Below are positions 40,074-61,938 of a stretch of DNA of 64,000 nucleotides, in pieces. Below the pieces are notes generated by a model, which worked only from the letters and a program-made list of their open reading frames with translations, was not told the origin of the DNA and searched no databases. The stretch comes from a virus. The DNA is taken from positions 797 to 64,796 of the IMG/VR virus record IMGVR_UViG_3300022602_000024; one strand, written 5' to 3'. How positions within the stretch are numbered: position 1 is the stretch's first letter; the number at the start of each line of letters is the position of its first letter. Position numbers and translations under genes: made by a program.

Positions 40074-43000
40074 ATGGCTCTTTTTAACACAATTAATTTT
40101 TTACCTTCCGTATTCCAAACTGTAACTAATCAACGGTTTTTAGGCGCCACTCTTGACCAGTTAGTAACTGATGCAGTGAATGTCCCCACTGACGGATACA
40201 TTGGGCGTACATTTGCCCCAACATATCAAGCCGGGGACAATTATATTCCTGAACTCAACGAGTTAAGAAAAAATTATCAACTTGAGGCTAGTGTAGTTGT
40301 TACTGATAAAAACAATAATATTGAATTTAATGCTGGATTCATTGACTTATTGAACAGCCTATATTCAAACGGCGGAATAGTTAATAATCAACAAAGACTA
40401 TTTGCGGGAGACAAATACAATTATGATGGCCATTTTGATTATGATAAGTTTGTAAACTATTATAATTATTATTGGTTGCCCAACGGCCCATTGGACGCAA
40501 ACGGAAATCCTACGTCAGTGGCAGTATCAGCAGCAGGTACACCGTACTCGGCAATTTATACAGTTACACGCAATACCGCACTAGGCGGATATGTTTTTAG
40601 CGGATTAGGTACACAACCTAACTTGCCGTTGACATTGGCACGCAGCGGAACTTATCAATTTGTTATTAACCAGCCTGGCATTAACTTTTGGATACAAAGT
40701 GATTCTGGCATTGCCGGAACTAAATCTAATCTTCCATCTGTCAGCACACGTTCTGTGTTTGGAGTCAAAAACAACGGCACAGACAGCGGCACAATAACAT
40801 TTACAGTACCGTCATCATCTAGTCAAGATTTCTATGCCAATATGCCAGTTGTGGCCAATGTGGATGCTGCGGTTAACAATTTAAAATACAAAGATATACA
40901 AGGACAACTTCTTAGTACATTCTTAGCCAACAACGGATCTGGTATAGATGGTATTAACAATTCATTGTCTGGGAAAAAATTTATTTTTGTATACGAGATA
41001 ACAACTGATGCAGACTGGACAGTTAACGGTGTAACTATCCCTGCAGCACAACGCAATAGTGTTTGGCAAATTACGGTTAACAATACAAATGGCATTATGT
41101 CTCTTAATCCGGTGCAAACAGTTACACCTCTAACCAAGGTTTCTATCACATCTGGTAAAACATATGCAAGCGTGCAGTTTTGGTTAAACAATAATTTTCA
41201 ATATTTAACTATTCCAAATATAACTGCTGCTCAAGAGTTTTTGTATTACCAAGACAGCCTAAACCCTGACTTTAACGGAGTGATTAAACTGGTTGACAAC
41301 TCTTCGGCAGTCATTGATGTAGAGGCTGAAATCATTGGAAAGACAGGATATGTTAGTCCCAATGGAGTACTGTTTACTAATGGATTAAAAATACAATTTG
41401 ATGCAACTGTGACTTCTGCTACTTACGCTGGTAATCAATATTATGTCGAAGGAGTTGGTACTGGCATGACATTGGTACCAGTGTCAGAATTGGTATCGCC
41501 TATTCCTGTTGGGGCATTTGGAATTGACACCAATGAAGAAGCAGATTATATAACCATTAACCGTGCTAGTCAAGACAGAAATCCCTGGTCGGTTGGTAAT
41601 CACTGGTTTCATAAGGATGTTATTGAAGCAACTGCCAAATACAACAACGAACAGGTGACTATTGCTAGTTATGGTCCAAACATCGCCGGACGTCGCCCTA
41701 TTATTGAATTTGAGCCCAACTTACAGTTGTTTAACTATGGCAAACAAGCTGGCAATAAGATAACTTACATTACATTTGAAGCAACAGATGCATTTGCAGA
41801 CATTGAAGGGCAAAGAACTTATACTTTAGATGGGCACGTATTAAAAAATGGCGACCGTATTGTTTTTGCCAATGATTATGACATTACCATTGTAAATGAA
41901 ATTTGGGAAGTGCAAATACAAGAAGTCAGTGCTGGTATACAATACTTGACCTTGGTTGAAACCACAGATGATCCAGTGTTACCCGGACAAAACTTTTTAG
42001 TAACCAGTGGGTTGCACGCTGGTAAAATTTATCAATATAACGGAACTTGGAATTCTATTCCTTGCCAAATCAAATATACTTTAAATCAACCTCCTTTGTT
42101 TGATCTAGTAGACAGCAACGGTTATAGTTTTGCAGACACTACTGTTTATCCTGGTAGTACATTTGCTGGAACACAATTCTTTGGATATAATGTTCCCACA
42201 GTCTCGGCCGGTTCGTTTATTGTAGGGTCAACCTACACAATCACATCCGTTGGTACAACAGACTTTACTGCAATAGGGGCAAGTGCAAATCAGTATGGCA
42301 TTACTTTCACAGCCACTGGTGTTGGTACTGGTACAGGCATGGCTTGTTCAGTATCTTTGGCAGATACCCTACTAGGATTTCCATTAACATATCAAAACTT
42401 TAACAATATCGGCGATATCCAGTTTAGCAATTATTACGATACAGATACATTTACATACGTAGAAAATCAATCCGTGGTTGCTGTTAACTGTAACTCTGGT
42501 TACCTTAATAAAAATTCCGGACTTACTACTAGTACAAAACTAAACAATTGGGTCAGTAGCATTGAAGTAACAGAGCAGTTTCAAACATTTACTAATTTCT
42601 TCAATGGAAGAACATTACCATTAAATGGAGTTGAGACTGCATATGTACCCATTGATGTATTGCCAGTTACTCAAAAAACAATCCCTCATATTAAAGTTTA
42701 TCTCAATAATAATTTGTTAATGGGTCCTGGCACAGCTACAAATCCACAAGACTATCAGATTAGTCAATTTGGAATTTATAATGCTATAACATTAACTACA
42801 TTGCCAACTGTTGGTGATAAAATTGATGTTAAGATTTTTAGCAATACTGCAAGTTCCTTGGGCTACTACGAAGTGCCTGACAACTTAGATTTTAACGCAT
42901 TAAATGAAAATTTTGAAACAATCACTTTAGGGCAAATAAGAACACACTACAATACGCTAATAGAGAATAAAGCAGTAGGTACAACAACAACTCCGCCATT

Positions 43001-46000
43001 GCAAGACAGTTACCTAAAACAACAAGGTGGTACAATATTAAAACATGATTCTCCGTTGGTTTATGCAATGACTTTCTTAGCTGATCCGACAGTTAATTTT
43101 GAAAACGGAATAAATCTAGCCAGAAGAGAATACACTAAATTTAAAAATAAATTTTTAAATCTCAGTACAACACTAAGCACACTGAACTATTCTGATGTTG
43201 CTGGAAGCGTTGATAAAATATTGCAGAACATTAACGGAATAAAAAATAGTAGTTTTCCTTGGTATTATAGCGACATGGTACCTCAAGGCAGTAACTATTT
43301 TACCATAACATATAATGTAGTTAATGCAAGACAGACACAATATGAAATTAGCAGTATCTTTAATAATACTGTTATCAGTAATCGTTCTGTATTAATTTAT
43401 GTCAATGGCGTGCAAAAAACAGTGGGCGCGGATTATAATTTTAGTTTAGTAAGTCCGTCGGTGACATTCACCAATACACTAACAGTCGGAGATGTTATTG
43501 TAATCAGAGAATACAGCAGCACTGACGGAAATTATATTCCCGAAACTCCTAGTAAGTTAGGACTCTATCCTTCGACTCCACCGGAGATTTATGTAGATAA
43601 TACATACCAGACTCCTACTACAGTTATTCGCGGTCACGATGGTAGTTTAACTCCGGCATTTGGTGATTTCAGAGATCAATTTTTGTTGGAGCTTGAGTTA
43701 AGAATCTACAATAATATCAAATCAAACTATGCTAATAATCAAATTGATTTATCTGCAATCACTCCTGGACGTTTTAGAACAACTGATTATTCGTTGGCTG
43801 AATACAATCAAGTACTAGCGCAACATTTTTTAACCTGGGTTGGATCTAATAGTGTAGACTATACTTCTAACAGTGGATACAGTCCAAATAATCCATGGAC
43901 TTGGAACTATGGAGAATTTCCAGACATAGTTGACGGTACATATTTACAAGGTTTTTGGCGTGCAATATACAAATATTGGTACGACACTGATACCCCTAAT
44001 CTAACTCCCTGGGAGATGCTAGGGTTTAGTAGCAGACCCAGCTGGTGGACAAAACGTTATGGTCCTGCACCTTATACCAGCGGCAATACATTGCTATGGG
44101 AAGACATGGAAGCAGGATATGTTTGGAATAACGGAACTCCTTACACTAACACAAACTATGCAAGACCTGGATTGACCACTTTAAATGGTCGTGGATTTGT
44201 CCCAGTTGATTCTGCAGGAAATTTACTAACCCCAACTCAGATTCCGGTATTTAAACAATATAATTATTCTGGCGCCAGCAGTAATTTTTCAGTTGGTCAG
44301 CAAGGTCCGGTAGAAACAGCTTGGCGCAGAAGCAGTGATTATCCTTTTGCAGTACAAAATACCCTGGCATTATTATATCCAGCCAAGTATTTTGCAACAC
44401 AACTAGATACTTCAAGATTTTATAAAAATTCAGCCACTGGGCAATTCACAGACTCTAGTAACCGAGCAATTGCACCTAAGTTACTAACAGTCAACGGAGC
44501 AACAGTCAATGGAACTGTGCAAAGGACCAGTGGATACATTAATTGGATTGCAGACGGGATTAAAAATCTAGGAATGGATCCAGCGGCATTGATCACCGAA
44601 TACTTTACCAATTTGTCTGTACAACTAAATTATAAGGTCGGCGGATTCATTGATCAAAATTTAATCACAATATCTGCAGAACAAACAACACCTGGCTCTA
44701 CCAATGCATCTGTTATTATTCCCGATACAAACTATAAGGTATATCTTAGTAAATCTGTACCAGTTTCATCATTGATATATAGCGCAGTTATTATAGAGTT
44801 AACTTCCTTGGGCTATAGTGTCAAAGGATACGATACAAACAATCCATTTTTTAGTATTATTCCTAGTATTGCCAGTGGCAATGTGATACCTGTGACTGCT
44901 AATAATATAACTGTGCAACTGTATCAAGATAAAACAAATACAGTGCAAACTGTTCCTTATGGTACAACATTTACCAGCATACAACAAACTGCTGATTTTT
45001 TATACAGTTACGAAAGATATTTGATATCACAGGGACTGGTATTTAATACGTTTAATCCAGATTTAAATATTGAACAAAACTGGACTCTGAGCATTCAAGA
45101 ATTTATGTATTGGGCACAACAAGGCTGGGCACCTGGCAATGTTATCATATTAAATCCAATTTCAACACAGTTAGAATTAAATGTTCCCGGTGCAGTTATT
45201 GATGAGATCAATAATACCAGTAACGGTAATAGAATCTTAGATGAAAACTTTAATCCGATTAAGAGTAATTTCTTTAATATTATACGTACCGATGGCCCTG
45301 ATGGTAATAGATCTTTGATAAGCACTATCAACGGATCAACTATTGCTTATGCACATCTGAGCTTGGTACAGTATGAACATGTATTGGTATTTGATAATGT
45401 TGATGCCTTCGGGGATATCATTTATATTCCTAGTCAAGGAACCAGACAATATCGTTTAAAATTGAATGGCACCAAAACTGGAGCTTGGAATGGCGCATTG
45501 AGTGCTCCAGGATATATCTATAGTAACCCAAATTTAAAAACTTGGTCTACTGGCACAGATTATAAACTCGGCGACATTGTTATATATAACAATAGATACT
45601 ATACTGCAAGTCAGGACATACCAGCTGCAACAACGTTTAACTTGTCTCTATGGACTCCAATTAATCAGAGCGATATACAAACTGGGTTACTAAGTAATTT
45701 TGCATTAAATGCCGAAGAGTTTGTGAACTTTTATGATGTAGATAACCCACCACAGAATAAAATTTATCAAGAATATGCGTCGGGTTTGATTGGCTTCAGA
45801 CAACGCCAATATTTAACAGACTTAGGTGTTAGTTTACCCACACAGACCAAATTCTATCAGGGATTCATCAAGCAAAAAGGTACAAACAATGCTATCAATG
45901 CGCTGACAAAAGCCAACTTTAACAATGTTCAAGGTAACTTGAATGTTTATGAGGAATGGGCATTCTTGGCTGGAGTTTACGGTGGAGTAAACAGCAATCA

Positions 46001-49000
46001 GTTTAAAGAATTTGTATTGGATCAAGCTGTATTCAATACTAATCCTGTTGCGTTTACCATTGGCGACACATATAGTACTGCAAATGCTATTATAGATTTT
46101 ACATTGGCAAATATTTATAATGCTAGCAATCTGTATACTACAAGCACATCAGTATATACTAATCGTACAAATACTTCTTATATAGAAGATTTGCCTACCA
46201 CTGGATATATGAATCTTCAAGACATTGATTATACTATATTTGATATTGCTAATATTAATCCTACTACAGAAAATATTACCAACTTGGGCGCAGGAAGCAA
46301 AATTTGGGTAGCAAAGAATTTTAGTGGACAATGGGATATACTTAGAGCAACAGAAACAAATTTAACTGCAACTGTATTAAGTTATGTTTTAGATAACTAC
46401 GCACAGTTAACTTTTAATAATGCTCACAATTTTAATACCGGTGATGTATTCATATTAAAATATTTTAATAATTCATATGACGGAATTTATACCATTGTTA
46501 ATGTACCTAACTTAACAACAGTGGTTATTGCCATAAATGACATTACCACTGGGTCAGCGTTGAACTCATTGAGCCCGTTAAAGAACTTGATGAGAGTATC
46601 TCATGTTAATGGAACAGGAACAGTATATCGTCTGACTTCGGCTCACGTGTCTACAGTCACAGATTTGGTTAACTTACCAGTACCGCCTAATGGTTGGTTA
46701 GATAATGATCATGTATGGGTAGACAACGCCAGTTCTGATGGGTGGGCAACATACACATACAATAAAACATGGCAAGCAAATTCATCTATTAGAATAACTG
46801 CTAACTCCGCAGTTAATAATTCTTACTTTGGGCATGTTACACGAATTAGCACAGACACTAATACAATATATGTAGGTAGTCCAGGTACACGACAAGTGCA
46901 GTTATTTGCCAATGTAACCGGAACTTATACCGCGACTACTACTCTATCAAATGTGGATAGCAGTTTTGGTACTGCAATAGAAACACAAGGCAATTTGTTG
47001 GCTGTCGGGGCACCTGTTAGCAGCAATGTACATGTTTATTTAGGAACGACACCAATACAAACTCTACATTCAACTGACGCTATGGAGTTGTTTGGCAGCA
47101 GTATATCAATGAGTGCAGATCAACATTGGTTGTATGTTGGCGCACCAGAGTCGGGTAATGTAAAAGCATTCTGGACTGCTACTGTAGGAACAAATACCAA
47201 CTACTGTTACATAGCGACCATTGGCACCACAACAGGCAACTTTGGACAAACTGTTAAAACCAACAGGGACGGGTCTATTGTGATTGTCGGTGCGCCTGCG
47301 GCCAATACTACAAAAACACAAAACGGCAATGTTTATGTTTACACTAGAACTGCCAACACATTTGTGTTAAGCCAAACTTTAACTAGTCAACATCAAAACA
47401 ACTATGCCAATTTTGGTACCAGTGTAGATATTGACAGCACGGCCACAAATCTATTCATTGGTGTTCCCGGATCTACAGCAGCTGGATATGCCAATGGACA
47501 AGTTGAAAGATATGTATTGACGGGATCAACCTATGTGTTCGATGAAATCATTGCACATCCATTTGGCGACATCGGAACATTTGGGTCTGCAGTCAGTGTT
47601 AGTAGTGATGCTAATATATTGGCAGTGGGCAGTGTTGGTTCGCCTAGTCAAGAAACAACCACATTTGACTACACTACTATGACCATTGATGCCGACACTA
47701 CTAAACTGGTAGATCGTATTTTTAACAGTGGGGCAACATATCTATTCCAACTTTTACAAGATTATTTAACTGGTACCGACGGAGAATATTTATATACACA
47801 AGAACTTGAAAGTCAGTTGTATTCTGGGGAAGAATATGGTGCTAGTGTTGCTGCCACTCGCGGAGTGATTGCAATCGGTGCACCCGGCTACAATAAAAAC
47901 CAAGGAACAGCATACATACTCACTAATAAAACTCAACAGTTGAATTGGAGTGTGACACGTAAACAGTCTCCCGCAGTTGACATCAATAGCATTAATAGAA
48001 CATTTATCTATAATAAAACTAATAATAACATTATTACTACACTGGATTTTATTGATCCAATAAAAGGCAAAATACTAAATGCAGTTGATAGAGATATTAA
48101 CTATAAACTAACTAAAGATCCAGCACTCTATAACAAAGGTTCAACTAGTATGGTTGAAAACTTGTCCTGGGGTCCAGAGCAAGTTGGTATAGTATGGTGG
48201 GATCTAAGCACAGTCAGATATATTAATTACGAGCAAGATACACTAACATATAGATTAACAAACTGGGGAACTGTATTCCCTGGTAGTAGTGTTGATGTAT
48301 ATCAATGGGTTGAAAGTACAGTTCCTCCAAGCCAATACACAGCCAATGGAGGAATTGGTATTCCGCTACATGCAGATAATTCTGCATATAGCACATACGG
48401 ATATGTGAATCCTGCCAATGGTGTATTGACAGTAAAGTATTATTTCTGGGTCCGAGATTTAACTCTGATTGCCAAAGGAAAAAATAATAGTGTCTATGCA
48501 ATTGCAGAATCTATTAGAAATCCACATAGTCAAGGCATACCTTATGCAACAGTACTTAGAGACGATACAGTTGCACTATACAATGTTGATACTTTATTGT
48601 CGGGGTCAAATAGTGTAATACAACTTGGCAGTCAGAATCCTGGCGAAACCAAAGAAACTAATCTAATACACAGTGAATATGCTTTGGTACAAGAAGGAAA
48701 CCCTAGTAGTAAAATACCAAATAGCATACTAATCAAATTAATAGACAGTTTGTCTGGAGTCGACAGAGCTGGTAATGTAGTGCCCGATCCTGCTCTTATA
48801 CCGAGTCAAGCATACGGAGTCAGCATACGCCCTCGCCAGTCAATGATAATAAATCAGCCATTGGCATTGAGCAACTATTTGAGTTTAGTTAACCCTTTAT
48901 TGCTAGCTTATCCTGTTGTGGAACGTAAAGTGTTAACCATATTAAACAGTAGTGAAGCTGCTCCAAATGCAGATTCTGGCGCTTATCAAATAACAGTCAA

Positions 49001-51479
49001 TAACATTGATGAATTAAGTTATGTGGATACTGCATTGTTGAGTGCAGGTTCTGCGGTGCTAGTGCTTGACGATAGTACACAATCAAGCAAATGGGCGATT
49101 TATACACTAGGAACCACGGGGGGAACCTTCCCAACAACACCAACTCGAGTTCAAAGTTATAAAACTAACTTGTATTGGACTCGTGCTGACTGGTACGATT
49201 CAAGTTACAATCCGACTTCAACACCAAACATAATTGTAGCCAACAAGTTAGAGTATGGTAAACTGACCTTAACTGCAAACACTTACGTTAAAGTATTGGA
49301 TGATGGCACAGGAAACTTTATTGTTTATTACATTGATAATAACTTAAAACAAACACTGGTAGGTATTCAAAATGGTACAATACAAATCAATACTACCACG
49401 ATTCCTGCACTTGAATTAAGACAAATATTGTTGGCCATGCAAGAAAATATTTTTGTTGATGACCTTGCAATAGAATATAATCAAATATTCTTTGCAATGA
49501 TCAAATACATATTAACAGAACAAAAAAATCTTGATTGGGTATTTAAGACCAGTTTCTTGAGTATTACGCAAAGTATTCGCAAGTTGGAAGAATTTCCAAG
49601 TTATGTTCCTGACAACCAAAACTTCTATTTGGATTACATCAATGAAGTTAAACCTTATCGTACAGAAATTCGTGAATTTGTTGCTGACTATGTTGGTAAC
49701 GATACCTACGGCAGTGACATTACCGATTTTGACTTAACACCATATTGGGACACCAACTTAAACATATATCGTAGCCCCAATGGCGAACAAGTTTATGACT
49801 CTGTGTTACAAGCCACTGGAGAAAACAGTCAGTGGAACAACAGTCACAAATATCAAGTCACTGGTGCAGTGATTGAAAATTCAGGATCTGGTTATATAAT
49901 CCCTCCACAGGTAGTTATATCTGGCGGTGGTGGCACTGGTGCCACCGGCTACGCAGTGCTAAATGAATCTGGCGGTGTTGCTGCAATTTCTATAACTAAC
50001 CCAGGATCCGGATATACAACAACTCCCTCTATACAGATCAATGGCGGAACTAATACCGCTACTGCTTATGCAATACTAAGAAATATTTACAACAGTGATA
50101 CTGGTGTTGGTCACAATCTTGTGCGAAGCATCAGTACCACAATGAAGTTTGACCGTATTAGTTATACTACGTCAAATACATTTGTGTACTGGGATACAGT
50201 AATTGCTGGACAATATATTACCGCTAATACAGTAATATCATTGAATGAAATGTTGTATAAAACAAAGGATAATATCATCATTGATGCCAACGTTACGTTC
50301 CCTGTAGCAAACGTTACAAGTATTGCTGCTGGGTCATTCGACAATGCAGCAGATCGCATTACTGCATTTAACCAAAATGCAGATCTTGGATTATACTTGG
50401 GCGGTATCAACTACCCAGGGGTAAAAGTTGATGGTAATACGTATCTTGGAACTACGTATGATACAAAGATTCAAAGTTTCTATGGAAATGTCTTGGGAGT
50501 TGATCCTAACGACATTGTAGTTGACGGTGGAGCATATTACGATACCTACAATAGTCATGCCCCAGAAGAAATGATTCCAGGTCGTTTGTACGACAGCTTG
50601 AATATCAGTGTATACACTGGTATTGCTGGCAACACAAGCACCATTGGATACAGAATAACACACGGTATGACTACAGATCCCACTACTGGTTATGTGCTAA
50701 ATCCTTCATTTTTGACCTTCAACGCCAATGCCGCGTTAATCGGCGGAAATGGGTGGGACTATTATGCACTTGGACGTTACGGAAATGTTAACTATCAAAA
50801 CTGGCCACAATACTATGCTATTTTTGCTGGTAATACCTCAACCCTAACTTCTGATTTACACCAGACTGATACATATATTCATGTGAGCAATGCGCAGGCA
50901 TTTGCTAATCCTAACCCTGAATTGGCAATACCTGGCGTAGTTTATATCAATGGTGAAAAGATTGTATTCTACAAAAACTACAGTCAAGAACCAGTTACTC
51001 CATGGGCAGCTAATTTGATTGTGCCCGCAGGAACTTTGGTGTCCTATGGAAATTTGGCAAATATTCAATTAACCACAGGCAACGTACAATCAAATGTGTA
51101 TTTGACCACTGGTAATGTATTTGCACGTTATTTTGCCAACATCACTGCAAACTTGACATTGATTGATATTAATTCTCTGGGACAAATACGCAGAGGCGTA
51201 GATGGTACTGCAACACCTACAGTACAGGTTGATGGTAGCAACGTAGTAGAAAGCGATATTATGCAACTAATACCTGGTGGCAATGTAGTGCACTTAACTA
51301 GCTGGATTGAAACAGAGACTGCGTTTGCGGCAAACATTACTGATCAAAACGGCAATTATATTGCTACAGATCCATCAGGAACAGTGATTCTCAATACTGG
51401 ATTAACCGTTGGACTGCCGGCTCCTGCATTAGAATACAGTTTAACTCCGCAAGCACAGTTCATCAAAGGGCAAGGTTAA
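40074..51479 (+). CDS. Giant composite baseplate/virion protein (3801 aa) at the gp7 position
   Basis: One unbroken frame of 11.4 kb starts MALFNTINFLPSVFQTVTNQ. Modules seen by eye: a cupredoxin-like segment at about 155-245 (GTYQFVINQPGINFWIQ...NNGTDSGTITFTVP); a YTITSVGTTDFTAIGA module at about 711-757; a CBM5/12-like segment at about 1822-1863 (YKLGDIVIYNNRYYTAS); an FG-GAP-type beta-propeller at about 2240-2620 (repeated FG.[AS][VI]....D...[LI].[VI]G.P); a Gly-rich GSGY..PP.V.ISGGGG module at about 3268-3335. A conserved block DYINEVKPYRTEIREFVADY lies near 3185-3210. T4 has gp7 (1032 residues) after gp6; whether this is a highly enlarged gp7 or a replacement is unknown. It is probably a peripheral baseplate protein. 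Confidence 0.8.
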   Translation: MALFNTINFLPSVFQTVTNQRFLGATLDQLVTDAVNVPTDGYIGRTFAPTYQAGDNYIPELNELRKNYQLEASVVVTDKNNNIEFNAGFIDLLNSLYSNGGIVNNQQRLFAGDKYNYDGHFDYDKFVNYYNYYWLPNGPLDANGNPTSVAVSAAGTPYSAIYTVTRNTALGGYVFSGLGTQPNLPLTLARSGTYQFVINQPGINFWIQSDSGIAGTKSNLPSVSTRSVFGVKNNGTDSGTITFTVPSSSSQDFYANMPVVANVDAAVNNLKYKDIQGQLLSTFLANNGSGIDGINNSLSGKKFIFVYEITTDADWTVNGVTIPAAQRNSVWQITVNNTNGIMSLNPVQTVTPLTKVSITSGKTYASVQFWLNNNFQYLTIPNITAAQEFLYYQDSLNPDFNGVIKLVDNSSAVIDVEAEIIGKTGYVSPNGVLFTNGLKIQFDATVTSATYAGNQYYVEGVGTGMTLVPVSELVSPIPVGAFGIDTNEEADYITINRASQDRNPWSVGNHWFHKDVIEATAKYNNEQVTIASYGPNIAGRRPIIEFEPNLQLFNYGKQAGNKITYITFEATDAFADIEGQRTYTLDGHVLKNGDRIVFANDYDITIVNEIWEVQIQEVSAGIQYLTLVETTDDPVLPGQNFLVTSGLHAGKIYQYNGTWNSIPCQIKYTLNQPPLFDLVDSNGYSFADTTVYPGSTFAGTQFFGYNVPTVSAGSFIVGSTYTITSVGTTDFTAIGASANQYGITFTATGVGTGTGMACSVSLADTLLGFPLTYQNFNNIGDIQFSNYYDTDTFTYVENQSVVAVNCNSGYLNKNSGLTTSTKLNNWVSSIEVTEQFQTFTNFFNGRTLPLNGVETAYVPIDVLPVTQKTIPHIKVYLNNNLLMGPGTATNPQDYQISQFGIYNAITLTTLPTVGDKIDVKIFSNTASSLGYYEVPDNLDFNALNENFETITLGQIRTHYNTLIENKAVGTTTTPPLQDSYLKQQGGTILKHDSPLVYAMTFLADPTVNFENGINLARREYTKFKNKFLNLSTTLSTLNYSDVAGSVDKILQNINGIKNSSFPWYYSDMVPQGSNYFTITYNVVNARQTQYEISSIFNNTVISNRSVLIYVNGVQKTVGADYNFSLVSPSVTFTNTLTVGDVIVIREYSSTDGNYIPETPSKLGLYPSTPPEIYVDNTYQTPTTVIRGHDGSLTPAFGDFRDQFLLELELRIYNNIKSNYANNQIDLSAITPGRFRTTDYSLAEYNQVLAQHFLTWVGSNSVDYTSNSGYSPNNPWTWNYGEFPDIVDGTYLQGFWRAIYKYWYDTDTPNLTPWEMLGFSSRPSWWTKRYGPAPYTSGNTLLWEDMEAGYVWNNGTPYTNTNYARPGLTTLNGRGFVPVDSAGNLLTPTQIPVFKQYNYSGASSNFSVGQQGPVETAWRRSSDYPFAVQNTLALLYPAKYFATQLDTSRFYKNSATGQFTDSSNRAIAPKLLTVNGATVNGTVQRTSGYINWIADGIKNLGMDPAALITEYFTNLSVQLNYKVGGFIDQNLITISAEQTTPGSTNASVIIPDTNYKVYLSKSVPVSSLIYSAVIIELTSLGYSVKGYDTNNPFFSIIPSIASGNVIPVTANNITVQLYQDKTNTVQTVPYGTTFTSIQQTADFLYSYERYLISQGLVFNTFNPDLNIEQNWTLSIQEFMYWAQQGWAPGNVIILNPISTQLELNVPGAVIDEINNTSNGNRILDENFNPIKSNFFNIIRTDGPDGNRSLISTINGSTIAYAHLSLVQYEHVLVFDNVDAFGDIIYIPSQGTRQYRLKLNGTKTGAWNGALSAPGYIYSNPNLKTWSTGTDYKLGDIVIYNNRYYTASQDIPAATTFNLSLWTPINQSDIQTGLLSNFALNAEEFVNFYDVDNPPQNKIYQEYASGLIGFRQRQYLTDLGVSLPTQTKFYQGFIKQKGTNNAINALTKANFNNVQGNLNVYEEWAFLAGVYGGVNSNQFKEFVLDQAVFNTNPVAFTIGDTYSTANAIIDFTLANIYNASNLYTTSTSVYTNRTNTSYIEDLPTTGYMNLQDIDYTIFDIANINPTTENITNLGAGSKIWVAKNFSGQWDILRATETNLTATVLSYVLDNYAQLTFNNAHNFNTGDVFILKYFNNSYDGIYTIVNVPNLTTVVIAINDITTGSALNSLSPLKNLMRVSHVNGTGTVYRLTSAHVSTVTDLVNLPVPPNGWLDNDHVWVDNASSDGWATYTYNKTWQANSSIRITANSAVNNSYFGHVTRISTDTNTIYVGSPGTRQVQLFANVTGTYTATTTLSNVDSSFGTAIETQGNLLAVGAPVSSNVHVYLGTTPIQTLHSTDAMELFGSSISMSADQHWLYVGAPESGNVKAFWTATVGTNTNYCYIATIGTTTGNFGQTVKTNRDGSIVIVGAPAANTTKTQNGNVYVYTRTANTFVLSQTLTSQHQNNYANFGTSVDIDSTATNLFIGVPGSTAAGYANGQVERYVLTGSTYVFDEIIAHPFGDIGTFGSAVSVSSDANILAVGSVGSPSQETTTFDYTTMTIDADTTKLVDRIFNSGATYLFQLLQDYLTGTDGEYLYTQELESQLYSGEEYGASVAATRGVIAIGAPGYNKNQGTAYILTNKTQQLNWSVTRKQSPAVDINSINRTFIYNKTNNNIITTLDFIDPIKGKILNAVDRDINYKLTKDPALYNKGSTSMVENLSWGPEQVGIVWWDLSTVRYINYEQDTLTYRLTNWGTVFPGSSVDVYQWVESTVPPSQYTANGGIGIPLHADNSAYSTYGYVNPANGVLTVKYYFWVRDLTLIAKGKNNSVYAIAESIRNPHSQGIPYATVLRDDTVALYNVDTLLSGSNSVIQLGSQNPGETKETNLIHSEYALVQEGNPSSKIPNSILIKLIDSLSGVDRAGNVVPDPALIPSQAYGVSIRPRQSMIINQPLALSNYLSLVNPLLLAYPVVERKVLTILNSSEAAPNADSGAYQITVNNIDELSYVDTALLSAGSAVLVLDDSTQSSKWAIYTLGTTGGTFPTTPTRVQSYKTNLYWTRADWYDSSYNPTSTPNIIVANKLEYGKLTLTANTYVKVLDDGTGNFIVYYIDNNLKQTLVGIQNGTIQINTTTIPALELRQILLAMQENIFVDDLAIEYNQIFFAMIKYILTEQKNLDWVFKTSFLSITQSIRKLEEFPSYVPDNQNFYLDYINEVKPYRTEIREFVADYVGNDTYGSDITDFDLTPYWDTNLNIYRSPNGEQVYDSVLQATGENSQWNNSHKYQVTGAVIENSGSGYIIPPQVVISGGGGTGATGYAVLNESGGVAAISITNPGSGYTTTPSIQINGGTNTATAYAILRNIYNSDTGVGHNLVRSISTTMKFDRISYTTSNTFVYWDTVIAGQYITANTVISLNEMLYKTKDNIIIDANVTFPVANVTSIAAGSFDNAADRITAFNQNADLGLYLGGINYPGVKVDGNTYLGTTYDTKIQSFYGNVLGVDPNDIVVDGGAYYDTYNSHAPEEMIPGRLYDSLNISVYTGIAGNTSTIGYRITHGMTTDPTTGYVLNPSFLTFNANAALIGGNGWDYYALGRYGNVNYQNWPQYYAIFAGNTSTLTSDLHQTDTYIHVSNAQAFANPNPELAIPGVVYINGEKIVFYKNYSQEPVTPWAANLIVPAGTLVSYGNLANIQLTTGNVQSNVYLTTGNVFARYFANITANLTLIDINSLGQIRRGVDGTATPTVQVDGSNVVESDIMQLIPGGNVVHLTSWIETETAFAANITDQNGNYIATDPSGTVILNTGLTVGLPAPALEYSLTPQAQFIKGQG

Positions 51480-52759: not shown

Positions 52760-53458
52760 ATGGATAAGCAACAAAGTACAAACACTATGGATAATAAAAC
52801 CCAACCAACCGCTGAAGTTAAACCTGAAAAAAAGCCTAACGAATCATCGGGCATTTATATTCGCGGACACATTAAAATCTTTGATCCTGAAACCAAGGAA
52901 GTTTATATTGACAAAGCCAATGCTATCCACTATGAGAATATGAGTATTGCGTTGGCTAACAGTATTGCTGATAAAGGACAAAACTTTATCTATGAAATGA
53001 ATTTTGGTAACGGTGGTACCAGTGTTGATCCTACAGGCATTATTACATATCTTCCTACCAACACAGTGGGTCAAAATGCCAACTTGTACAATCCCACTTA
53101 TAGTAAGATTGTCGATGATACTGCTATTGCAAATCCAGACCCAGTTAATAACAAAATGACAGTGAGTCATATTCCTGGCACAGTATACACAGATATACTA
53201 GTAAGTTGTTTACTTGATTACGGCGAACCTTCGGGGCAAAGTGCATTTGACAACAGTACCAACTTAAGCGGCCAGTATGTATTTGACGAACTGGGCTTGC
53301 GTGGTCGTAGTACTGATGGCACTAGTGGACTAACAAGTACCGGACTATTGCTAACACACGTGGTATTTCATCCAGTACAAAAAGCATTAAATCGTTTAAT
53401 TCAAATTGATTATACTGTGCGCATTCAAACTTTAACTAATCTAAGTTCAATAGGATAA
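52760..53458 (+). CDS. Conserved T4-like structural protein in the fibre locus (232 aa)
   Basis: After a polar, charged N-terminus of about 30 residues comes a well-defined domain: IYIRGHIKIFDPETKEV, KANAIHYENMSIALANSIA, IYEMNFGNGGTSVDPTGIIT, then YVFDELGLRGRS and HVVFHPVQKALNRLIQIDYT. This pattern is conserved in aquatic T4-like phages beside fibre and baseplate genes, but I know no assigned function. The start at 52760 has an ACGGAA site; an inner ATG at 52787 would remove a nonconserved-looking nine residues. The next gene begins 4 bp after the stop. Probably a baseplate or fibre-attachment component. Confidence 0.7.
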   Translation: MDKQQSTNTMDNKTQPTAEVKPEKKPNESSGIYIRGHIKIFDPETKEVYIDKANAIHYENMSIALANSIADKGQNFIYEMNFGNGGTSVDPTGIITYLPTNTVGQNANLYNPTYSKIVDDTAIANPDPVNNKMTVSHIPGTVYTDILVSCLLDYGEPSGQSAFDNSTNLSGQYVFDELGLRGRSTDGTSGLTSTGLLLTHVVFHPVQKALNRLIQIDYTVRIQTLTNLSSIG

Positions 53459-53462
53459 TTAA

Positions 53463-55082
53463 ATGAGTTATACCATATCATTAACAGACGGCACGGTACT
53501 AAACACACCACTTATGCCTGCAGGTACTCTTGCAGACGGAACCACAGACAGTACAACAGGTTTAACACTAGTTGGTCGCAACTACACTGGCTACGGTGGT
53601 ATTCAAAATGAAAACTTTATAAAGTTGTTGGAAAACTTTGCCGACACTATCCCGCCTACACAGAGTGTTAACGCTACTATTCCATTAGTTGGTACCATAT
53701 GGTATGACACTGGCAATAACTTATTAAAAGTTTTTGATGGCACAAACTTTAATGTGATCAGTGGACGTCAAGCTGGTGCTACTGCTCCTACTGCCAAGAA
53801 CGTTGGAGATCAATGGTGGGATACTGTTAACTTACAGTTGAATTCTTGGACTGGCACTGCCTGGCAAGTGATTGGACCAAACTATACTGCTGGACAAGGC
53901 CTAACAGGATCCGTACCTGGAACTATTGTTGATAGTAATTCAACTGCGCACACGGTTGCAAACACTTATGCTGGCGGCGAACTAATAAGTATTTCAAGTT
54001 ATGATGCAGCTTTTACTCCTGCCACTGCAATTGCTAATTTTCCTGCAACTATTGCTCCTGGTATTACTGTAGCAAATACTTCTACATTTGTTGGCACTGC
54101 AACTAACAGTACAACAGTTGGTGGATTGTCTCCAACTGTATTTGCAAGAAAAGATATTCCTACAACTTTTGCTAGTGATATTACAGTAACTGGCAATTTA
54201 GTTAATAACGGAGCAAACATATCTGTTGTTAATAACTCATTCAGATTACATAATCACAATATCCAGGGCAATATTGAACTTCGGGTTACGGCTGATTCGG
54301 GCTTCCCTCTCGGCTCAATTACTGCACTAAAAATCAATGGTGCAGATGGCACTGCTCAAGTGTATGCAGATCCTACTACTCCCACTGGCATTGCTACTAA
54401 AAACTACGTTGACGCAGTTAGTTCTAGTGTTAACAACACAGTATCTGCTATTACCTCAGAGATAAATGCTAATGTATCGGCAATACAAGCAGATTATCTT
54501 GCTAACATATCAGTGGTGACTAACCAATTGATATCTCAAATTACCGCAGTGGAAAATGCTGCAGTAGCTAATATCACTGCGGTAGCGTCGGCTTTGGTGT
54601 CAAATGTTACATTGATAGTTGCTAATCTAGCAACAACTGCATCTAATATTAATGCATTAAATGGCGGATTAAATACCAAAGCACCAATAGCAAGTCCGAC
54701 ATTTACTGGAACTCCGGCAGCTCCAACACCATCACCAAACAACAATAGCACAACTATTGCTACAACTGCATATGTAGATGCTTCGGCTGGTGTTTTGGCA
54801 GCTGATTATAATAGCAAATTTACCAGCGAAGTGTCAGCAAGAAACGCTGCAATTACAGCTGCCACAGGATCATTTGCACCCAAGGCAAATCCGACATTTA
54901 CTGGCACGGTCAGTGCACCAACTCCGTCATCGGGTGATAATAGCGGAACAGTTGCTACCACTGCATTTGTACATGCCGCAGTGGGTGGCATTGGTAGTAG
55001 CTGGCAAGGAAGCGGGTATACTGTTGCTGGATCGCCGCCATCGGGTGGCTCCAATGGAGATTTTTGGTTCCAGGTAGGATAA
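53463..55082 (+). CDS. Tail fibre protein, paralogue A (539 aa)
   Basis: The N-terminal about 200 residues (MSYTISLTDGTVLNTPLMPA; GYGGIQNENFIKLLENFAD; GTIWYDTGNNLLKVFDG; DQWWDTVNLQLNSWTG) are shared with the proteins at 58864 and 60589 and probably form a common baseplate or fibre attachment domain. A coiled-coil-like Ala/Val/Ser region (about 315-395) follows, then two copies of PTFTGTxxAPTPSxxxxSxTxATTAxV, a repeat common in fibre shafts. The C-terminus ends SGGSNGDFWFQVG. Role in adsorption inferred. Confidence 0.78.
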   Translation: MSYTISLTDGTVLNTPLMPAGTLADGTTDSTTGLTLVGRNYTGYGGIQNENFIKLLENFADTIPPTQSVNATIPLVGTIWYDTGNNLLKVFDGTNFNVISGRQAGATAPTAKNVGDQWWDTVNLQLNSWTGTAWQVIGPNYTAGQGLTGSVPGTIVDSNSTAHTVANTYAGGELISISSYDAAFTPATAIANFPATIAPGITVANTSTFVGTATNSTTVGGLSPTVFARKDIPTTFASDITVTGNLVNNGANISVVNNSFRLHNHNIQGNIELRVTADSGFPLGSITALKINGADGTAQVYADPTTPTGIATKNYVDAVSSSVNNTVSAITSEINANVSAIQADYLANISVVTNQLISQITAVENAAVANITAVASALVSNVTLIVANLATTASNINALNGGLNTKAPIASPTFTGTPAAPTPSPNNNSTTIATTAYVDASAGVLAADYNSKFTSEVSARNAAITAATGSFAPKANPTFTGTVSAPTPSSGDNSGTVATTAFVHAAVGGIGSSWQGSGYTVAGSPPSGGSNGDFWFQVG

Positions 55083-55085
55083 CAC

Positions 55086-58000
55086 ATGGCTGCAGAGAAC
55101 AGAGCAATTTGGGTTAATCAGCAAGGCACTTGGAAAAAAGTCACTAACTTTTCTATCAATCAAGGCGGAAACTGGGTCCCAGTGTCTGCGGCTTATTACA
55201 ACGATAACGGAATTTGGAAACAGTTTTATCCCAGTGGCGGCGTAGTAAATGCACTTGGTGCTGGTACATACAGTTGGTTAGTACCACCTGGTGTTACTTC
55301 AATCACTGTTGACCTAGTAGGTGGTGGCGGTGGTGGTGGCACTGGAGAAGAAGTAGACTCCGGCGGAGCTGGTGGCGGTGGTGGCTCTGGTGGATATCAA
55401 AGCGGAGTCACATTTCCTACAGTACCTGGCGAAACTCTAACAATTACAGTTGGTGCTGGTGGTGCTGGTGGGTTAACGTCAGGACGTGGGTCCACTGCCG
55501 GAGGTAGTGATGGTGGTACTACTTCCATTACAGGATCACAAGGTACATTAACTGCCACAGGCGGAACAGGTGCCTTGGCAGGTGGAGATTCTGGTGGCGG
55601 ATCCAAAAAAAATGCCGGAGTTATTGGAAATTTAGTAAACAGTATTTTTGGTGGAGGAAGTTCTAACCCTCCTCCACCAGGCGTTGGTGGCCTAGGCGGC
55701 ACTGGCGGCTATCCTAACGGAGCCAATGGTGTTACAGGCGATGCTGGACAAAGTGATGGCGCATCAGGCAATGGTGGTGCCGGTGGGTCAACTCCATTTG
55801 GTGCAGGCGGACCAGGCGGAATAGGCGGTAAGTCTACTCAATCCACTACTGCATCGACTGCTACAGGTTCGGCTGGATTGGGATATGGATCTGGTGGTGG
55901 CGGAGCAGGATTCCAAAATGCAGTAAATCCATTGGGATGGTCAGGCGGCAATGGACAAGATGGCGGTGTTCAAATACGTTGGAACAACGGACTACTATCA
56001 ACTTTCTTGCAACCTGGTGCACCTGCGGCCAGCAATGGTACAATAATACCAAATCAGGCAACATTAACTCCTAGTGTTACAACTGCATCAACATCGGCCA
56101 ACAATCCGACTTATGCTTCGGGTGTTATAGTATCCGTTCCAGGATCCAGTTCCGCATCCTCAACAACAAACTCTGGAGCATCGGTAAATGCAATAACGGT
56201 TGCCACTGCAAGCGGTACAACATCGGGTACAACATCAGACTCTCTACCTACTCCGGATGTGATAAAACAACTAGCAGATGCAATCAACGGGCTAACACCG
56301 TCTCAAATTGCGGCCTATATGGATAAAAATAAGATACCTCCAATTTCCATATCGCTTGCATCGGGAATAACCGCGCAGGAAGTTCAAGATCAATATAATG
56401 CAGTTGACCCAAACGGCATTTATAGTACTGCCGCTTTTGTATCGTTACCAACAACAATACAAGTTGATCCTCCTAGCGGAAACAGCGGTACTGAATTCAC
56501 CATAAGCATATTCAACGGATATCCTAATCAACCATATGGAGTATGGGCAGTAACATCTCCGCCACCAGATTCTTATCAAGCAGCACACCCAGGGCTCACG
56601 GAGTATCAAATAGAAGGGATTATCTTTAATGATGGAACTGGTCTGATGACTACAGACGCCAAGGGTTACGCAAAAAATATTATATCCGGATATGCCATGA
56701 CTGGATATCAGTATGCAAACTCACTAGATAATGAAACAATCAATGTAAAATTAACACCTTTTGCATCAGGTGGGGCATTTCCTGCTGGCGGATATAATTC
56801 GTTTGCAAAAAGTTCAGTCAGTGTAGCAGTTTTAAACACCTACAATACAACTGAAAGCAATAAGGCTATTTATGCAAAAATATTGGCCGATACGGCAGGC
56901 ATGACACCGTCTCAAATTGCACACTACATGGATACCAATGGTTACTCGGCTTTAACCGTGGCCAGTGCATTAGGACTGTCGGGTTCTGCTGTTCAGGCAG
57001 CTTATAACGCAGTTGATCCAAATGGTCCTTACAGTACAGCAGAGCAAACCAACCCGACACTAACACTTGATCCACCCACTGGTGATCTATCAACAGTGTT
57101 TACTGCCACTCTCACTAATGGACTGCGTAATTTAACGTACACCTTTGCTGTTATTGATGCAGCTGGAACTTTTATTAATGGGGAAGGAAAATCTGTAGTG
57201 CTCGATTCGTCTGGCACAGGGTCAACAACGGTCTCTGCCTTACAACTAGCGACTCTGTATGAAGCTCTAAATGTTAATGAGATAATAACAACGTTCAATG
57301 GGATAACTCTTAATCCAATACATATAGGTGCACAGCAATCATCTAGTAGTACTTTACTTCAGAGTAACCCTGTATACATCACATGCGTCAATGCTCCGGG
57401 TAGTGCACCTGCAAACTCTGGAACCAGTGGGTCAGGTGGCGACGGCGGATATGCGGCATCAGCAGACTTAGCACCAATTCCTTTTGCAAACTATAACCAA
57501 ACAAACGCCTACTGGGACAAAACATCTCGCCAGCTAACTCCTGATCCCAAATGGCGCAATTGGGGCATACTACGATGTGTAACTGGGGTTCCTGTTGATG
57601 GGTGGGGAGCAGATGGCACGCCCGATACCACAGGTACAGTAACATTACCGGTATCGGGCAAAAATGTAGATGTGGTAATACTAGATTTGGGCACTTTTAA
57701 TCCTAATCACCCAGAATTTGCAGTAAATCCCAATGGCACTGGCGGTAGTAGAGCAGTCACATTCAACTGGTTTATTTACAACGAATGGCTAAATTTAGGA
57801 ATTAATAGTCAATATTCTGACACCAGTTACAACACTTATGATGCCAATCATGCGGCACATTGTGCTGGTATCGCAGCAGGTAATACTTATGGGTGGGCAC
57901 GTAGCGCAAACATATATTCAATAAATTACGCAGTATGTCCAGGAGGCAACAGTGCCACTGGATTTGCCAATGCATTTGATTATGTTAGAGCTTTCCATGT

Positions 58001-58838
58001 CAACAAACCAGTCAACCCTGCAACAAATCGCAAAAACCCCACAGTGATAAGTTGCAGTGACTATTGGCAACATTACGAAAACTCTTATTCTAATATTATT
58101 ACAGTGAATTATCGGGGTACAACTTACAATGCCCCAGCTGGAGGATTCACACAAGCACAACTGGCAACGCTAGGTATATTGGATCCATTGGGCAATGGTA
58201 CAATACGTGTAGACCAAAGAAATGCCACCGTGGATGCTGCAGTGGCACGTTGTATTGCAGCAGGAGTAACCGTGGTTAGTATTGCAGGAAACTATGGATC
58301 TTACATAGATGTTCCTTCTGGACAAGATTACAACAATTATTTCATTGACAACACAAGTGCAGTAGTATATTACCATCAAGGATCTAGTCCTGGTGCTGCA
58401 CCTGGAGTTATCTGTGTAGGCAATATGAATTCCACAGTGGTTGAACAAAAGGCCAACGATAGTGGCAACGGACCCAGGGTAGATGTGTTTGCTCCTGGTA
58501 CCAGCATTATCAGTTCATTGAATACTGCAATTGGTGCAACACAATTGGCCAACATCAATGCAATTACTGGCACTTATAATTTGCCCACAGTACCTGATCC
58601 TCGCAATCCCGCATTTTATGTAGGCAAAGACTCTGGTACCAGTATGGCATGCCCACAAGTTGCTGGGTATCTTGCGTGTATGTTGGAAAAATACCCCACT
58701 GCAACACCAACACAATTGTACGGTTTTGTTGCCAACAATGCTACTACAGGGCAATTGACATCCACGGTTGCAGGGTACGGACTCAACAATGATCTCAATG
58801 GCGCATCCAACTTGGTTTTGCGGGCAGCTTTTACATAA
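55086..58838 (+). CDS. Gly-rich fibre protein with a subtilisin-type (S8) protease domain
   Basis: A 1250-residue composite. Residues 1-60 resemble a tail-attachment segment (IWVNQQGTWKKVTNFSINQ). About 75-300 are a Gly-rich domain (LVGGGGGGGTG). Two paired modules near 400 and 600 share LTPSQIAAYMD / MTPSQIAHYMD followed by YNAVDPNG.YSTA and an Ig-like strand set. About 855-1250 are a subtilase: D867 (VVILDLGTFNPNHPEF), H922 (NHAAHCAGIAAG), oxyanion N1069 (VVSIAGNYG) and nucleophile S1186 (SGTSMACPQVAGY). All four expected residues are present, so activity is likely. Virion association is inferred from its place between fibre genes. Possible roles: host-surface protein degradation or fibre self-processing. 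Confidence 0.85.
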   Translation: MAAENRAIWVNQQGTWKKVTNFSINQGGNWVPVSAAYYNDNGIWKQFYPSGGVVNALGAGTYSWLVPPGVTSITVDLVGGGGGGGTGEEVDSGGAGGGGGSGGYQSGVTFPTVPGETLTITVGAGGAGGLTSGRGSTAGGSDGGTTSITGSQGTLTATGGTGALAGGDSGGGSKKNAGVIGNLVNSIFGGGSSNPPPPGVGGLGGTGGYPNGANGVTGDAGQSDGASGNGGAGGSTPFGAGGPGGIGGKSTQSTTASTATGSAGLGYGSGGGGAGFQNAVNPLGWSGGNGQDGGVQIRWNNGLLSTFLQPGAPAASNGTIIPNQATLTPSVTTASTSANNPTYASGVIVSVPGSSSASSTTNSGASVNAITVATASGTTSGTTSDSLPTPDVIKQLADAINGLTPSQIAAYMDKNKIPPISISLASGITAQEVQDQYNAVDPNGIYSTAAFVSLPTTIQVDPPSGNSGTEFTISIFNGYPNQPYGVWAVTSPPPDSYQAAHPGLTEYQIEGIIFNDGTGLMTTDAKGYAKNIISGYAMTGYQYANSLDNETINVKLTPFASGGAFPAGGYNSFAKSSVSVAVLNTYNTTESNKAIYAKILADTAGMTPSQIAHYMDTNGYSALTVASALGLSGSAVQAAYNAVDPNGPYSTAEQTNPTLTLDPPTGDLSTVFTATLTNGLRNLTYTFAVIDAAGTFINGEGKSVVLDSSGTGSTTVSALQLATLYEALNVNEIITTFNGITLNPIHIGAQQSSSSTLLQSNPVYITCVNAPGSAPANSGTSGSGGDGGYAASADLAPIPFANYNQTNAYWDKTSRQLTPDPKWRNWGILRCVTGVPVDGWGADGTPDTTGTVTLPVSGKNVDVVILDLGTFNPNHPEFAVNPNGTGGSRAVTFNWFIYNEWLNLGINSQYSDTSYNTYDANHAAHCAGIAAGNTYGWARSANIYSINYAVCPGGNSATGFANAFDYVRAFHVNKPVNPATNRKNPTVISCSDYWQHYENSYSNIITVNYRGTTYNAPAGGFTQAQLATLGILDPLGNGTIRVDQRNATVDAAVARCIAAGVTVVSIAGNYGSYIDVPSGQDYNNYFIDNTSAVVYYHQGSSPGAAPGVICVGNMNSTVVEQKANDSGNGPRVDVFAPGTSIISSLNTAIGATQLANINAITGTYNLPTVPDPRNPAFYVGKDSGTSMACPQVAGYLACMLEKYPTATPTQLYGFVANNATTGQLTSTVAGYGLNNDLNGASNLVLRAAFT

Positions 58839-60588: not shown

Positions 60589-61938
60589 ATGTCTTATACA
60601 ATTAATAAATCGGATGGAAGCACACTAGTATCTGGTGGCTTGTCTGACGGCACTATTGATACAACACACTCAAGTTTAACATTAATTGGTAAAGATTACG
60701 CTGGTTACGGTCAATTTCTAAACGAGAATTTTGTTTTCTTATTGGAAAATTTTGCATCAATTGGTAGCCCATCAAACCCAATTCCGGGACAACTATGGTT
60801 TGATAAACATAACAATATTCTTAAAGTCTATACCGGAAACAGTTGGAAAATCTCCACTGGTGCTACTACTAGTCCGTATTCTAGTCCGCCAGTTGATACT
60901 AGTGCACAAGGTGGAGACTTATGGTTTGATACATCAAACAGCCAACTAAAAGTTTGGTCTGGCACAAACTGGGTAACTATTGGTCCAGTTGGTACTGCAG
61001 CAACAGGAAATTCTGGAGCAGTTCCGGCAGTGATATTAGACACTACTGGTGGTACACACGTGGTAGTGCAGATTTTGATTTACGGTATACCGTATGTCAT
61101 TATTTCCAAGGACGCTACTTTTTTCACCAACATATCTGGATTTTCTACAGTTAATCCAGGCTTTAACGTCAATACTGCTTCCTCACCGTTTTTGGGAGTA
61201 GCTGCCGGGCAAGCTCTAACTGCTAATATTATAACCGCAGGATCTGTAGTAACAAACGGAATAACTACGTCAGGTACCACTGCAATTACACCGTCGGCAA
61301 TTACAACCAGCACACTCAATGCATCGACGATAGTTACATCATCGTCGATCACAGTAGGCAGTTCTACTGTAGCCGGGACATCAGTAACAACTCCAACACT
61401 GAATGCGACAGCAGTAAATGTCAGCGGAACAATAGCCCCAACTGCTAATTTAGGTGTAAATTTGGGATCTAGTGGTACTTGGTTCAACAATGTGTATGCA
61501 GCTCAGTTTGTAGGTACCACATTTGCAGGAACAGCGGTACGTGCACTCTACGCTGACTTGGCAGAACGGTTTGAAGCAGACACAGAATACGAGCCAGGAA
61601 CCGTGGTTGAAATGGGCGGCCCTGCAGAAATAACCAAAGTCGGTGCAGAATTAAGCGATAATGTATTTGGAGTCATAAGTACTAATGCAGCCTATTTGAT
61701 GAATGCCGGTGCCGGAACAGATGTTACACATCCACCTATAGCAATGAGCGGTAGAGTTCCAGTCAAAGTAGTAGGTACAGTCAAAAAAGGTGATAGATTA
61801 GTCAGTGCCGGAAACGGATGTGCCCGTGCAGGGTCAAAAGCAGAAATTACTCCTTGGAATGTAATTGGACGTAGTTTGGTTGACAAACTGGATGCTGATG
61901 AAGGTATAATTGAAGCTATAGTAAAAATAAATTCATAA
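60589..61938 (+). CDS. Tail fibre protein, paralogue C, with Peptidase_G2-like C-terminus
   Basis: A 449-residue protein: N-terminal about 190 residues as in paralogues A and B (GYGQFLNENFVFLLENFAS; GQLWFDKHNNILKVYTGNS), a Ser/Thr-rich shaft (about 200-300, repeated TSSxxVxSSTVAG-like), an NLGSSGTWFNNVYAAQF unit, and from about residue 318 the domain ALYADLAERFEADTEYEPGT shared with the 404-residue protein. Eighteen consecutive bases are the same in the two genes at the start of this domain, consistent with module exchange. A good ribosome site (AAAGGAA) precedes the start. Confidence 0.78.
   Translation: MSYTINKSDGSTLVSGGLSDGTIDTTHSSLTLIGKDYAGYGQFLNENFVFLLENFASIGSPSNPIPGQLWFDKHNNILKVYTGNSWKISTGATTSPYSSPPVDTSAQGGDLWFDTSNSQLKVWSGTNWVTIGPVGTAATGNSGAVPAVILDTTGGTHVVVQILIYGIPYVIISKDATFFTNISGFSTVNPGFNVNTASSPFLGVAAGQALTANIITAGSVVTNGITTSGTTAITPSAITTSTLNASTIVTSSSITVGSSTVAGTSVTTPTLNATAVNVSGTIAPTANLGVNLGSSGTWFNNVYAAQFVGTTFAGTAVRALYADLAERFEADTEYEPGTVVEMGGPAEITKVGAELSDNVFGVISTNAAYLMNAGAGTDVTHPPIAMSGRVPVKVVGTVKKGDRLVSAGNGCARAGSKAEITPWNVIGRSLVDKLDADEGIIEAIVKINS

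What the first reader, a model, noticed from the sequence alone, without database searches (positions are those of the whole stretch)
55086..58838. Subtilisin-type protease fused to a Gly-rich tail-fibre protein
Seen: a complete catalytic set D867, H922, N1069, S1186 in correct order and motif context at the C-terminus of a 1250-residue protein. The protein begins with a fibre-like segment and a long Gly-rich domain and lies between two fibre genes. Known: S8 proteases need exactly these residues. Inference: a virion-borne protease that trims host surface proteins, opens an S-layer, or matures the fibre. The His motif HAAHCAG with a Cys is a variant of HGTHVAG.
Basis: partly seen in the sequence, partly recalled or inferred. 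Interest (0 to 1): 0.76.

Follow-up and report, generated by a model that had tools for sequence, protein, structure and literature searches.

The report
Phage tail adhesin carrying a subtilisin protease
A giant bacterial virus carries, at the place where its relatives carry host-gripping tail tips, a tip-type protein that ends in an apparently intact protein-cutting enzyme of the proteinase K type, which suggests that it cuts proteins on the host surface as it attaches.

Summary
The 1250-residue ORF at 55086-58838 has D867, H922, N1069 and S1186 in an S8 (subtilase) domain (Pfam E 2.9e-17). The predicted fold is confident (pLDDT 90.7) and superposes on proteinase K-like enzymes (Z about 37, 2.0 Å over 275 residues). 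All four residues are invariant in 53 aligned sequences. The window lies in a 354 kb T4-like virus record. The S8 domain belongs to a widespread phage family: 40 GenBank records, nearly all cyanomyoviruses, and more than 550 IMG/VR stretches. What is unusual here is the architecture. Relatives are typically I9-like prodomain plus S8, about 550 residues. Here the prodomain is missing and 800 residues replace it: a fibre-type N-terminus, a Gly-rich adhesin domain and a duplicated helical/Ig-like module. Sibling jumbo phages keep the locus and usually the same kind of N-terminus and Gly-rich domain, but with lectin, PA14 or helical parts and no S8. Best reading: a protease domain moved onto a variable tail-tip adhesin and used on host surface proteins at adsorption. 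Substrate, activity and folding without a prodomain are untested. New variant of a known kind.

The parts
52760..53458 (+). 232-aa virion-cluster protein, phrog_11259; conserved anchor of the locus used to find sibling jumbo phages
   Evidence: phrog_11259 E 5e-71; 42-51% identity to Atu_ph07 and Rak2-like phages; siblings in IMG/VR
53463..55082 (+). 539-aa fibre-type protein directly upstream, ends ...DFWFQVG
   Evidence: several tail fibre PHROGs, best E 5.6e-15; position conserved in siblings
55076..55085 (+). gene junction: AGGA (ribosome-binding-like) inside the last codons of the upstream gene, stop TAA, CAC, then ATG at 55086, all in one frame
   Evidence: sequence shown directly
55086..55250 (+). 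residues 1-55: fibre-type N-terminal segment (WVNQQGTWKKV.. / ..NDNGIWKQFYPS), likely attachment part
   Evidence: phrog_25859 E 3.9e-5 over residues 11-59; same kind of N-terminus in sibling genes
55260..55982 (+). residues 59-299: Gly-rich adhesin-type domain
   Evidence: PF21722 E 3.6e-12; match to Bxb1 gp33 tail wing brush, 9d93, E 2.5e-4
55983..56258 (+). residues 300-391: Ser/Thr-rich linker
   Evidence: 38% Ser+Thr
56259..56870 (+). residues 392-595: module copy 1 (helical part, then beta part)
   Evidence: 48% identity to copy 2 over 91 aa; alignment A4
56871..57410 (+). residues 596-775: module copy 2
   Evidence: low-confidence model, pLDDT 59.5, helices plus strands
57411..57485 (+). 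residues 776-800: Gly/Ser-rich linker where relatives have an I9-like prodomain
   Evidence: sequence; no match of the phage prodomain profile
57486..58835 (+). residues 801-1250: S8 (subtilase, proteinase K-like) domain; codons D867 57684-57686, H922 57849-57851, N1069 58290-58292, S1186 58641-58643
   Evidence: PF00082 E 2.9e-17; model and fold matches; invariant residues
58864..60540 (+). 558-aa downstream fibre protein with tail-collar-type C-terminus
   Evidence: phrog_1800 tail collar fibre E 4e-18; Pfam Collar E 7e-4, under its cut-off

Best explanation
This is a tail-tip adhesin with a protease head. The fibre-type N-terminus attaches it to the tail or fibre assembly. The Gly-rich domain and the duplicated module act as receptor-binding or spacer parts. 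The C-terminal proteinase K-like domain cuts proteins on or around the host surface during adsorption, to expose or release the receptor or to clear a protein cover. Shown here: an intact S8 sequence and predicted fold, fusion to an adhesin-type protein, position in a fibre cluster, absence of the family's prodomain, and change of the domain make-up of this gene among siblings. Inferred: virion location (by homology), proteolytic activity, host-surface substrate. The domain probably came by recombination from the phage family of stand-alone prodomain-plus-S8 proteins of fibre/baseplate clusters.
For: S8 profile, fold and invariant active site. Fibre cluster with tail genes on both sides. Gly-rich adhesin-type domain, with a sequence match to a solved tail component. 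Relatives lie in fibre/baseplate clusters of cyanophages, and the S-SCSM1 relative is marked as detected in virions. Siblings at the same locus carry lectin, PA14 or helical parts and no S8. The window S8 nests in the phage family by tree. No signal-peptide-like start in the sequence.
Against: No activity or virion data for this protein. Subtilases usually need a prodomain to fold (general knowledge) and none was found. Substrate and host unknown. No close relative with the same fusion was found, so conservation of the fusion itself cannot be tested.
Confidence: 0.55

Rival explanations
1. Maturation protease: the S8 domain trims the phage's own fibre or adhesin, in cis or in trans, during assembly and has no host substrate.
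For: It is fused to the adhesin and encoded among fibre genes; subtilases commonly process themselves (general knowledge).
Against: Siblings that keep the neighbouring genes have no S8 at this locus, and 37 of 40 sibling records have none anywhere, though most are fragments. Lectin or PA14 parts at the same locus point to surface interaction.
Confidence: 0.17
2. Binding-only head: the domain keeps the subtilase fold but serves for binding and is not an active protease, perhaps because it lacks a prodomain.
For: No prodomain in the protein or, as far as Pfam I9 can tell, in the record; G923A and an extra residue next to the catalytic Asp are rare in the family.
Against: D, H, N and S and the GTSM.P motif are kept although the domain is only about 40-46% identical to its nearest relatives; the active-site set would be expected to drift if unused.
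Confidence: 0.15
3. Not a virion part: a protein made late in infection that acts in the cell or after lysis, merely encoded near fibre genes.
For: In S-SCSM1 the authors allow that some enzymes seen in the virion preparation may be highly expressed carry-over proteins (PMC9602691).
Against: Fibre-type N-terminus and Gly-rich domain of the same kind as in sibling genes at the locus; tail gene cluster; no signal-peptide-like start.
Confidence: 0.07

Closest known systems
Cyanomyovirus subtilisin-like serine proteases (phrog_9158; S-CREM1 SCREM1_165, S-H38 gp095, Sf-FR1_192, P-SSM2_297, S-SCSM1_228)
   Same: S8 domain up to 42% identical with the same invariant D/H/N/S; gene in a fibre/baseplate cluster
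   Different: These have an I9-like prodomain directly before S8 and no Gly-rich domain; the window protein lacks the prodomain and has 800 adhesin-type residues instead
Agrobacterium phage Atu_ph07 'extracellular serine proteinase precursor' (AUZ95088)
   Same: Jumbo phage with related structural genes; S8 protein of nearly the same length (1251 aa) one gene away from a tail fibre gene
   Different: S8 at residues 177-459 near the N-terminus, followed by Ig-type domains; S8 itself remote (17% in Foldseek); no Gly-rich domain
Gly-rich tail-tip proteins (PF21722; Bxb1 gp33, S16 gp38)
   Same: Gly-rich domain with a sequence match to gp33; gp33 is described as resembling the S16 gp38 bundle (PMC13243192)
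   Different: Those proteins carry no protease (general knowledge); the match is modest and the structure was not predicted here
Proteinase K / aqualysin-type subtilases
   Same: Fold and active site: Z about 37, 2.0 A over 275 residues
   Different: Secreted enzymes with a propeptide (general knowledge); here no prodomain was found and the domain sits on a phage adhesin

Membership tests
Peptidase family S8 (subtilases) | Catalytic Asp, His, Ser in that order, with oxyanion Asn, in S8 motif context | tested here: met
   PF00082 E 2.9e-17; residues verified and invariant in 53 rows
Peptidase family S8 (subtilases) | Subtilase fold | tested here: met
   pLDDT 90.7; Z 37.5, rmsd 2.0 A over 275 residues
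Peptidase family S8 (subtilases) | Proteolytic activity | not testable with these tools
   needs purified protein
Phage prodomain-plus-S8 family (phrog_9158) | S8 domain related by sequence | tested here: met
   phrog_9158 E 2.4e-60; nested in the phage family by tree
Phage prodomain-plus-S8 family (phrog_9158) | I9-like prodomain directly before S8 | tested here: not met
   prodomain profile finds nothing in the window; Pfam I9 finds nothing in the record. The relatives' segment is itself only weakly I9-like
Phage prodomain-plus-S8 family (phrog_9158) | Gene in a fibre/baseplate cluster | tested here: met
Gly-rich tail-tip adhesins (PF21722 / gp38-like) | Gly-rich domain above the family cut-off | tested here: met
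   PF21722 47.2 bits, cut-off 24.3
Gly-rich tail-tip adhesins (PF21722 / gp38-like) | Polyproline-II bundle structure at the fibre tip | tested here: inconclusive
   phmmer match to 9d93 gp33, E 2.5e-4; fold and position in the virion not tested

The most novel reading that the evidence does not exclude
A subtilase that has exchanged its folding prodomain for a tail-fibre adhesin, so that the protease folds or becomes active only within the assembled virion or on receptor binding: a contact-activated, host-directed protease at a phage tail tip, one of several alternative heads at a variable adhesin locus.
Probability: 0.2. Interest if true: 0.75.

Novelty: new variant of a known kind. Interest (0 to 1): 0.55.

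Why it matters
Phage tail tips are well known to carry enzymes that cut sugars and cell wall, while proteases aimed at the host surface are poorly documented (general knowledge). A large phage family of S8 proteins sits in fibre/baseplate clusters, mostly annotated as hypothetical, subtilisin-like or baseplate wedge, and no function was found for it in the papers searched. A natural fusion of this domain to an adhesin is a hint, from gene architecture, that the family works on host surface proteins, and it points to cultured cyanophages in which that can be tested. Folding without a prodomain would also interest enzymologists.

Tried and rejected
Stop-codon readthrough joining the upstream fibre and this gene: the genes are in one frame, separated by TAA-CAC, and the layout recurs in siblings, but the embedded AGGA explains it, one sibling has two stops in a row (L105), another is out of frame (L106) and another has no spacer codon (L104). 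A hidden prodomain elsewhere: Pfam I9 found nothing in the whole record and the phage prodomain profile found nothing in the window. A cyanobacterial host by photosynthesis genes: no Photo_RC gene in the record, so the host stays unknown. Relatives of the duplicated module: none by IMG/VR patterns, phages or plasmids; its model is low confidence and Foldseek gave only weak matches, several Ig-like. S8 in sibling jumbo records: three hits, all of a different type with signal-peptide-like starts and a long C-terminal part. Other fused S8 by exact motifs (GTSMACPQVAG, NHAAHCAG): further prodomain-type relatives and a few remote or truncated S8 ORFs, no second fusion. Bacterial relatives: three loci by pattern, two of them T4-like phage contigs in one MAG. 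Papers on phage-borne subtilisins: nothing functional found.

Full report
Check of the observation. The ORF 55086-58838 (+) encodes 1250 residues. Pfam finds Peptidase_S8 over residues 858-1232, covering the whole profile (E 2.9e-17), and Gly_rich_2 over residues 59-299 (E 3.6e-12). PHROGs gives phrog_9158 (E 2.4e-60), phrog_3677 'protease' (E 5.6e-26) and, for the Gly-rich part, a tail family. An AlphaFold2 model of residues 780-1250 built with 53 sequences has pLDDT 90.7 and pTM 0.91. Against the PDB it matches proteinase K-like enzymes (Foldseek E 1.2e-18; VIA Z 37.5, rmsd 2.0 A over 275 residues). In the 53-row alignment D, H, N and S are invariant. The Cys in HAAHCAG also occurs in other phage relatives, so it is not remarkable; G923A and an extra residue after the Asp are the unusual points.

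Where it lies. The window is part of a 354,429-base virus record. Its structural genes are those of T4-like jumbo phages: the baseplate wedge protein is about 33-36% identical to GAP32, 121Q, PA5oct and similar phages, and the gene at 52760-53458 (phrog_11259) is about 42-51% identical to Phosso, Atu_ph07 and Rak2-like phages. The protease gene sits between two fibre-type genes. Its ATG lies 3 nt behind the upstream stop, in the same frame, with AGGA in the upstream gene's last codons. No photosynthesis reaction-centre gene was found in the record; the host is unknown.

The protease family. tblastn finds 40 phage records, nearly all Synechococcus or Prochlorococcus myoviruses, best 42% identity to the S-CREM1 peptidase. 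These genes sit in fibre/baseplate clusters, in three of the six records read directly behind a gene annotated as baseplate wedge and tail pin. In IMG/VR at least 559 stretches encode relatives. The relatives read start with about 75 residues such as EYVVTLK...SRNTHYMLTDEEAE..RSDPRV, then S8; 79 of 83 with an intact start pass a crude test for this, and the listing shows the others to begin alike. This segment resembles the subtilase propeptide family I9: 16 of 37 members match Pfam I9 weakly (best E 0.0018), and the best solved-structure match, itself weak (E 0.38), is a separate 112-residue chain of the ProteinT protease entry (8c4z_A), most likely its propeptide. The window protein has no such segment: the phage prodomain profile finds nothing, Pfam I9 finds nothing in the whole record, and the residues just before S8 are a Gly/Ser-rich linker. 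In a maximum-likelihood tree the window S8 falls within the family (a 43-row clade at 95/90), while the rows outside that clade also start with prodomain-like sequence (sequences). Loss or replacement of the prodomain on this branch is the simplest reading. No second fusion of this kind turned up among the relatives examined, though only the best 80 of the IMG/VR hits could be read.

Virion association. In the S-SCSM1 record the S8 relative SSCSM1_228 is noted '(virion protein)'. [quoted passage not shown] Both bear the same note, whereas several other tail genes do not.

The adhesin side and the swap. IMG/VR siblings with up to 86% identity in the 52760-53458 gene keep the order phrog_11259 gene, fibre, gene X, and where the contig reaches, fibre. 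In the closest of these, gene X has the same kind of N-terminus, a Gly-rich domain, or both, but no S8. Instead there are Laminin_G lectin domains (L105), PA14 with another Gly-rich domain in a sibling whose gene starts differently (L106), or helical C-termini. Of 40 sibling records searched whole, 37 have no S8 at all; most are fragments. The three hits are a different S8 type with signal-peptide-like starts. The Gly-rich domain has a sequence match (E 2.5e-4) to gp33, the tail wing brush of phage Bxb1 (9d93), which PMC13243192 describes as resembling the polyproline-II bundle of the S16 tail protein gp38. Residues 392-775 are two copies of a module (48% identity over 91 aa) that models as helices plus a beta part at low confidence and has no relatives found.

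Mechanism. The best-supported reading is a tail-tip adhesin carrying a protease head that acts on host surface proteins at adsorption. Shown: the intact S8 domain, the fusion, the locus with changing parts, the absent prodomain. Inferred: virion location, activity, target. Fibre maturation is less likely because siblings appear to do without S8. A binding-only head cannot be excluded, because subtilases usually need a propeptide to fold (general knowledge), but the complete conservation of the active site argues against it.

Judgement. The S8 protein family in phages is known and annotated, so the enzyme is not new. The fusion to an adhesin with loss of the prodomain is a new variant and gives a testable hint at the function of the whole family. 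Nothing here proves activity.

Noticed in passing
window 55074-55088; siblings L094-L103: Fibre and adhesin genes are joined by an in-frame STOP-nnn-ATG with a ribosome-binding-like AGGA in the window's upstream codons; the layout recurs in most close siblings. Translational coupling is the likely reason.
   Followed up: partly
L051 3442-7827; L059 7737-12086: Phage proteins of about 1450 residues combine the prodomain-like start and S8 with a BD-FAE (esterase-type) domain and Ig domains in one chain.
   Followed up: no
L174, L175, L176: Three sibling viral contigs carry another S8 gene type with a signal-peptide-like N-terminus and a long C-terminal part that looks autotransporter-like.
   Followed up: no
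L184, L185 (FZLS01000012, FZLS01000013): Two contigs of the MAG 'Rhodobacteraceae bacterium Water_Bin34' look like T4-like phage DNA with baseplate-type genes around an S8 gene.
   Followed up: no
MK867354.2 189576-193811 (SSCSM1_228): The S-SCSM1 S8 protein (1411 aa, with Laminin_G domains) is annotated 'baseplate wedge subunit', which hides the protease.
   Followed up: partly
window 60589-61938: A further fibre-type protein matches Peptidase_G2, the self-cleaving intramolecular chaperone domain of tail proteins, just under its cut-off (24.2 against 25 bits).
   Followed up: no
window 40074-51479: A 3801-residue virion structural protein (phrog_10938) stands just before the fibre cluster; a comparable giant gene precedes the protease in S-CREM1 and S-H38.
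   Followed up: no
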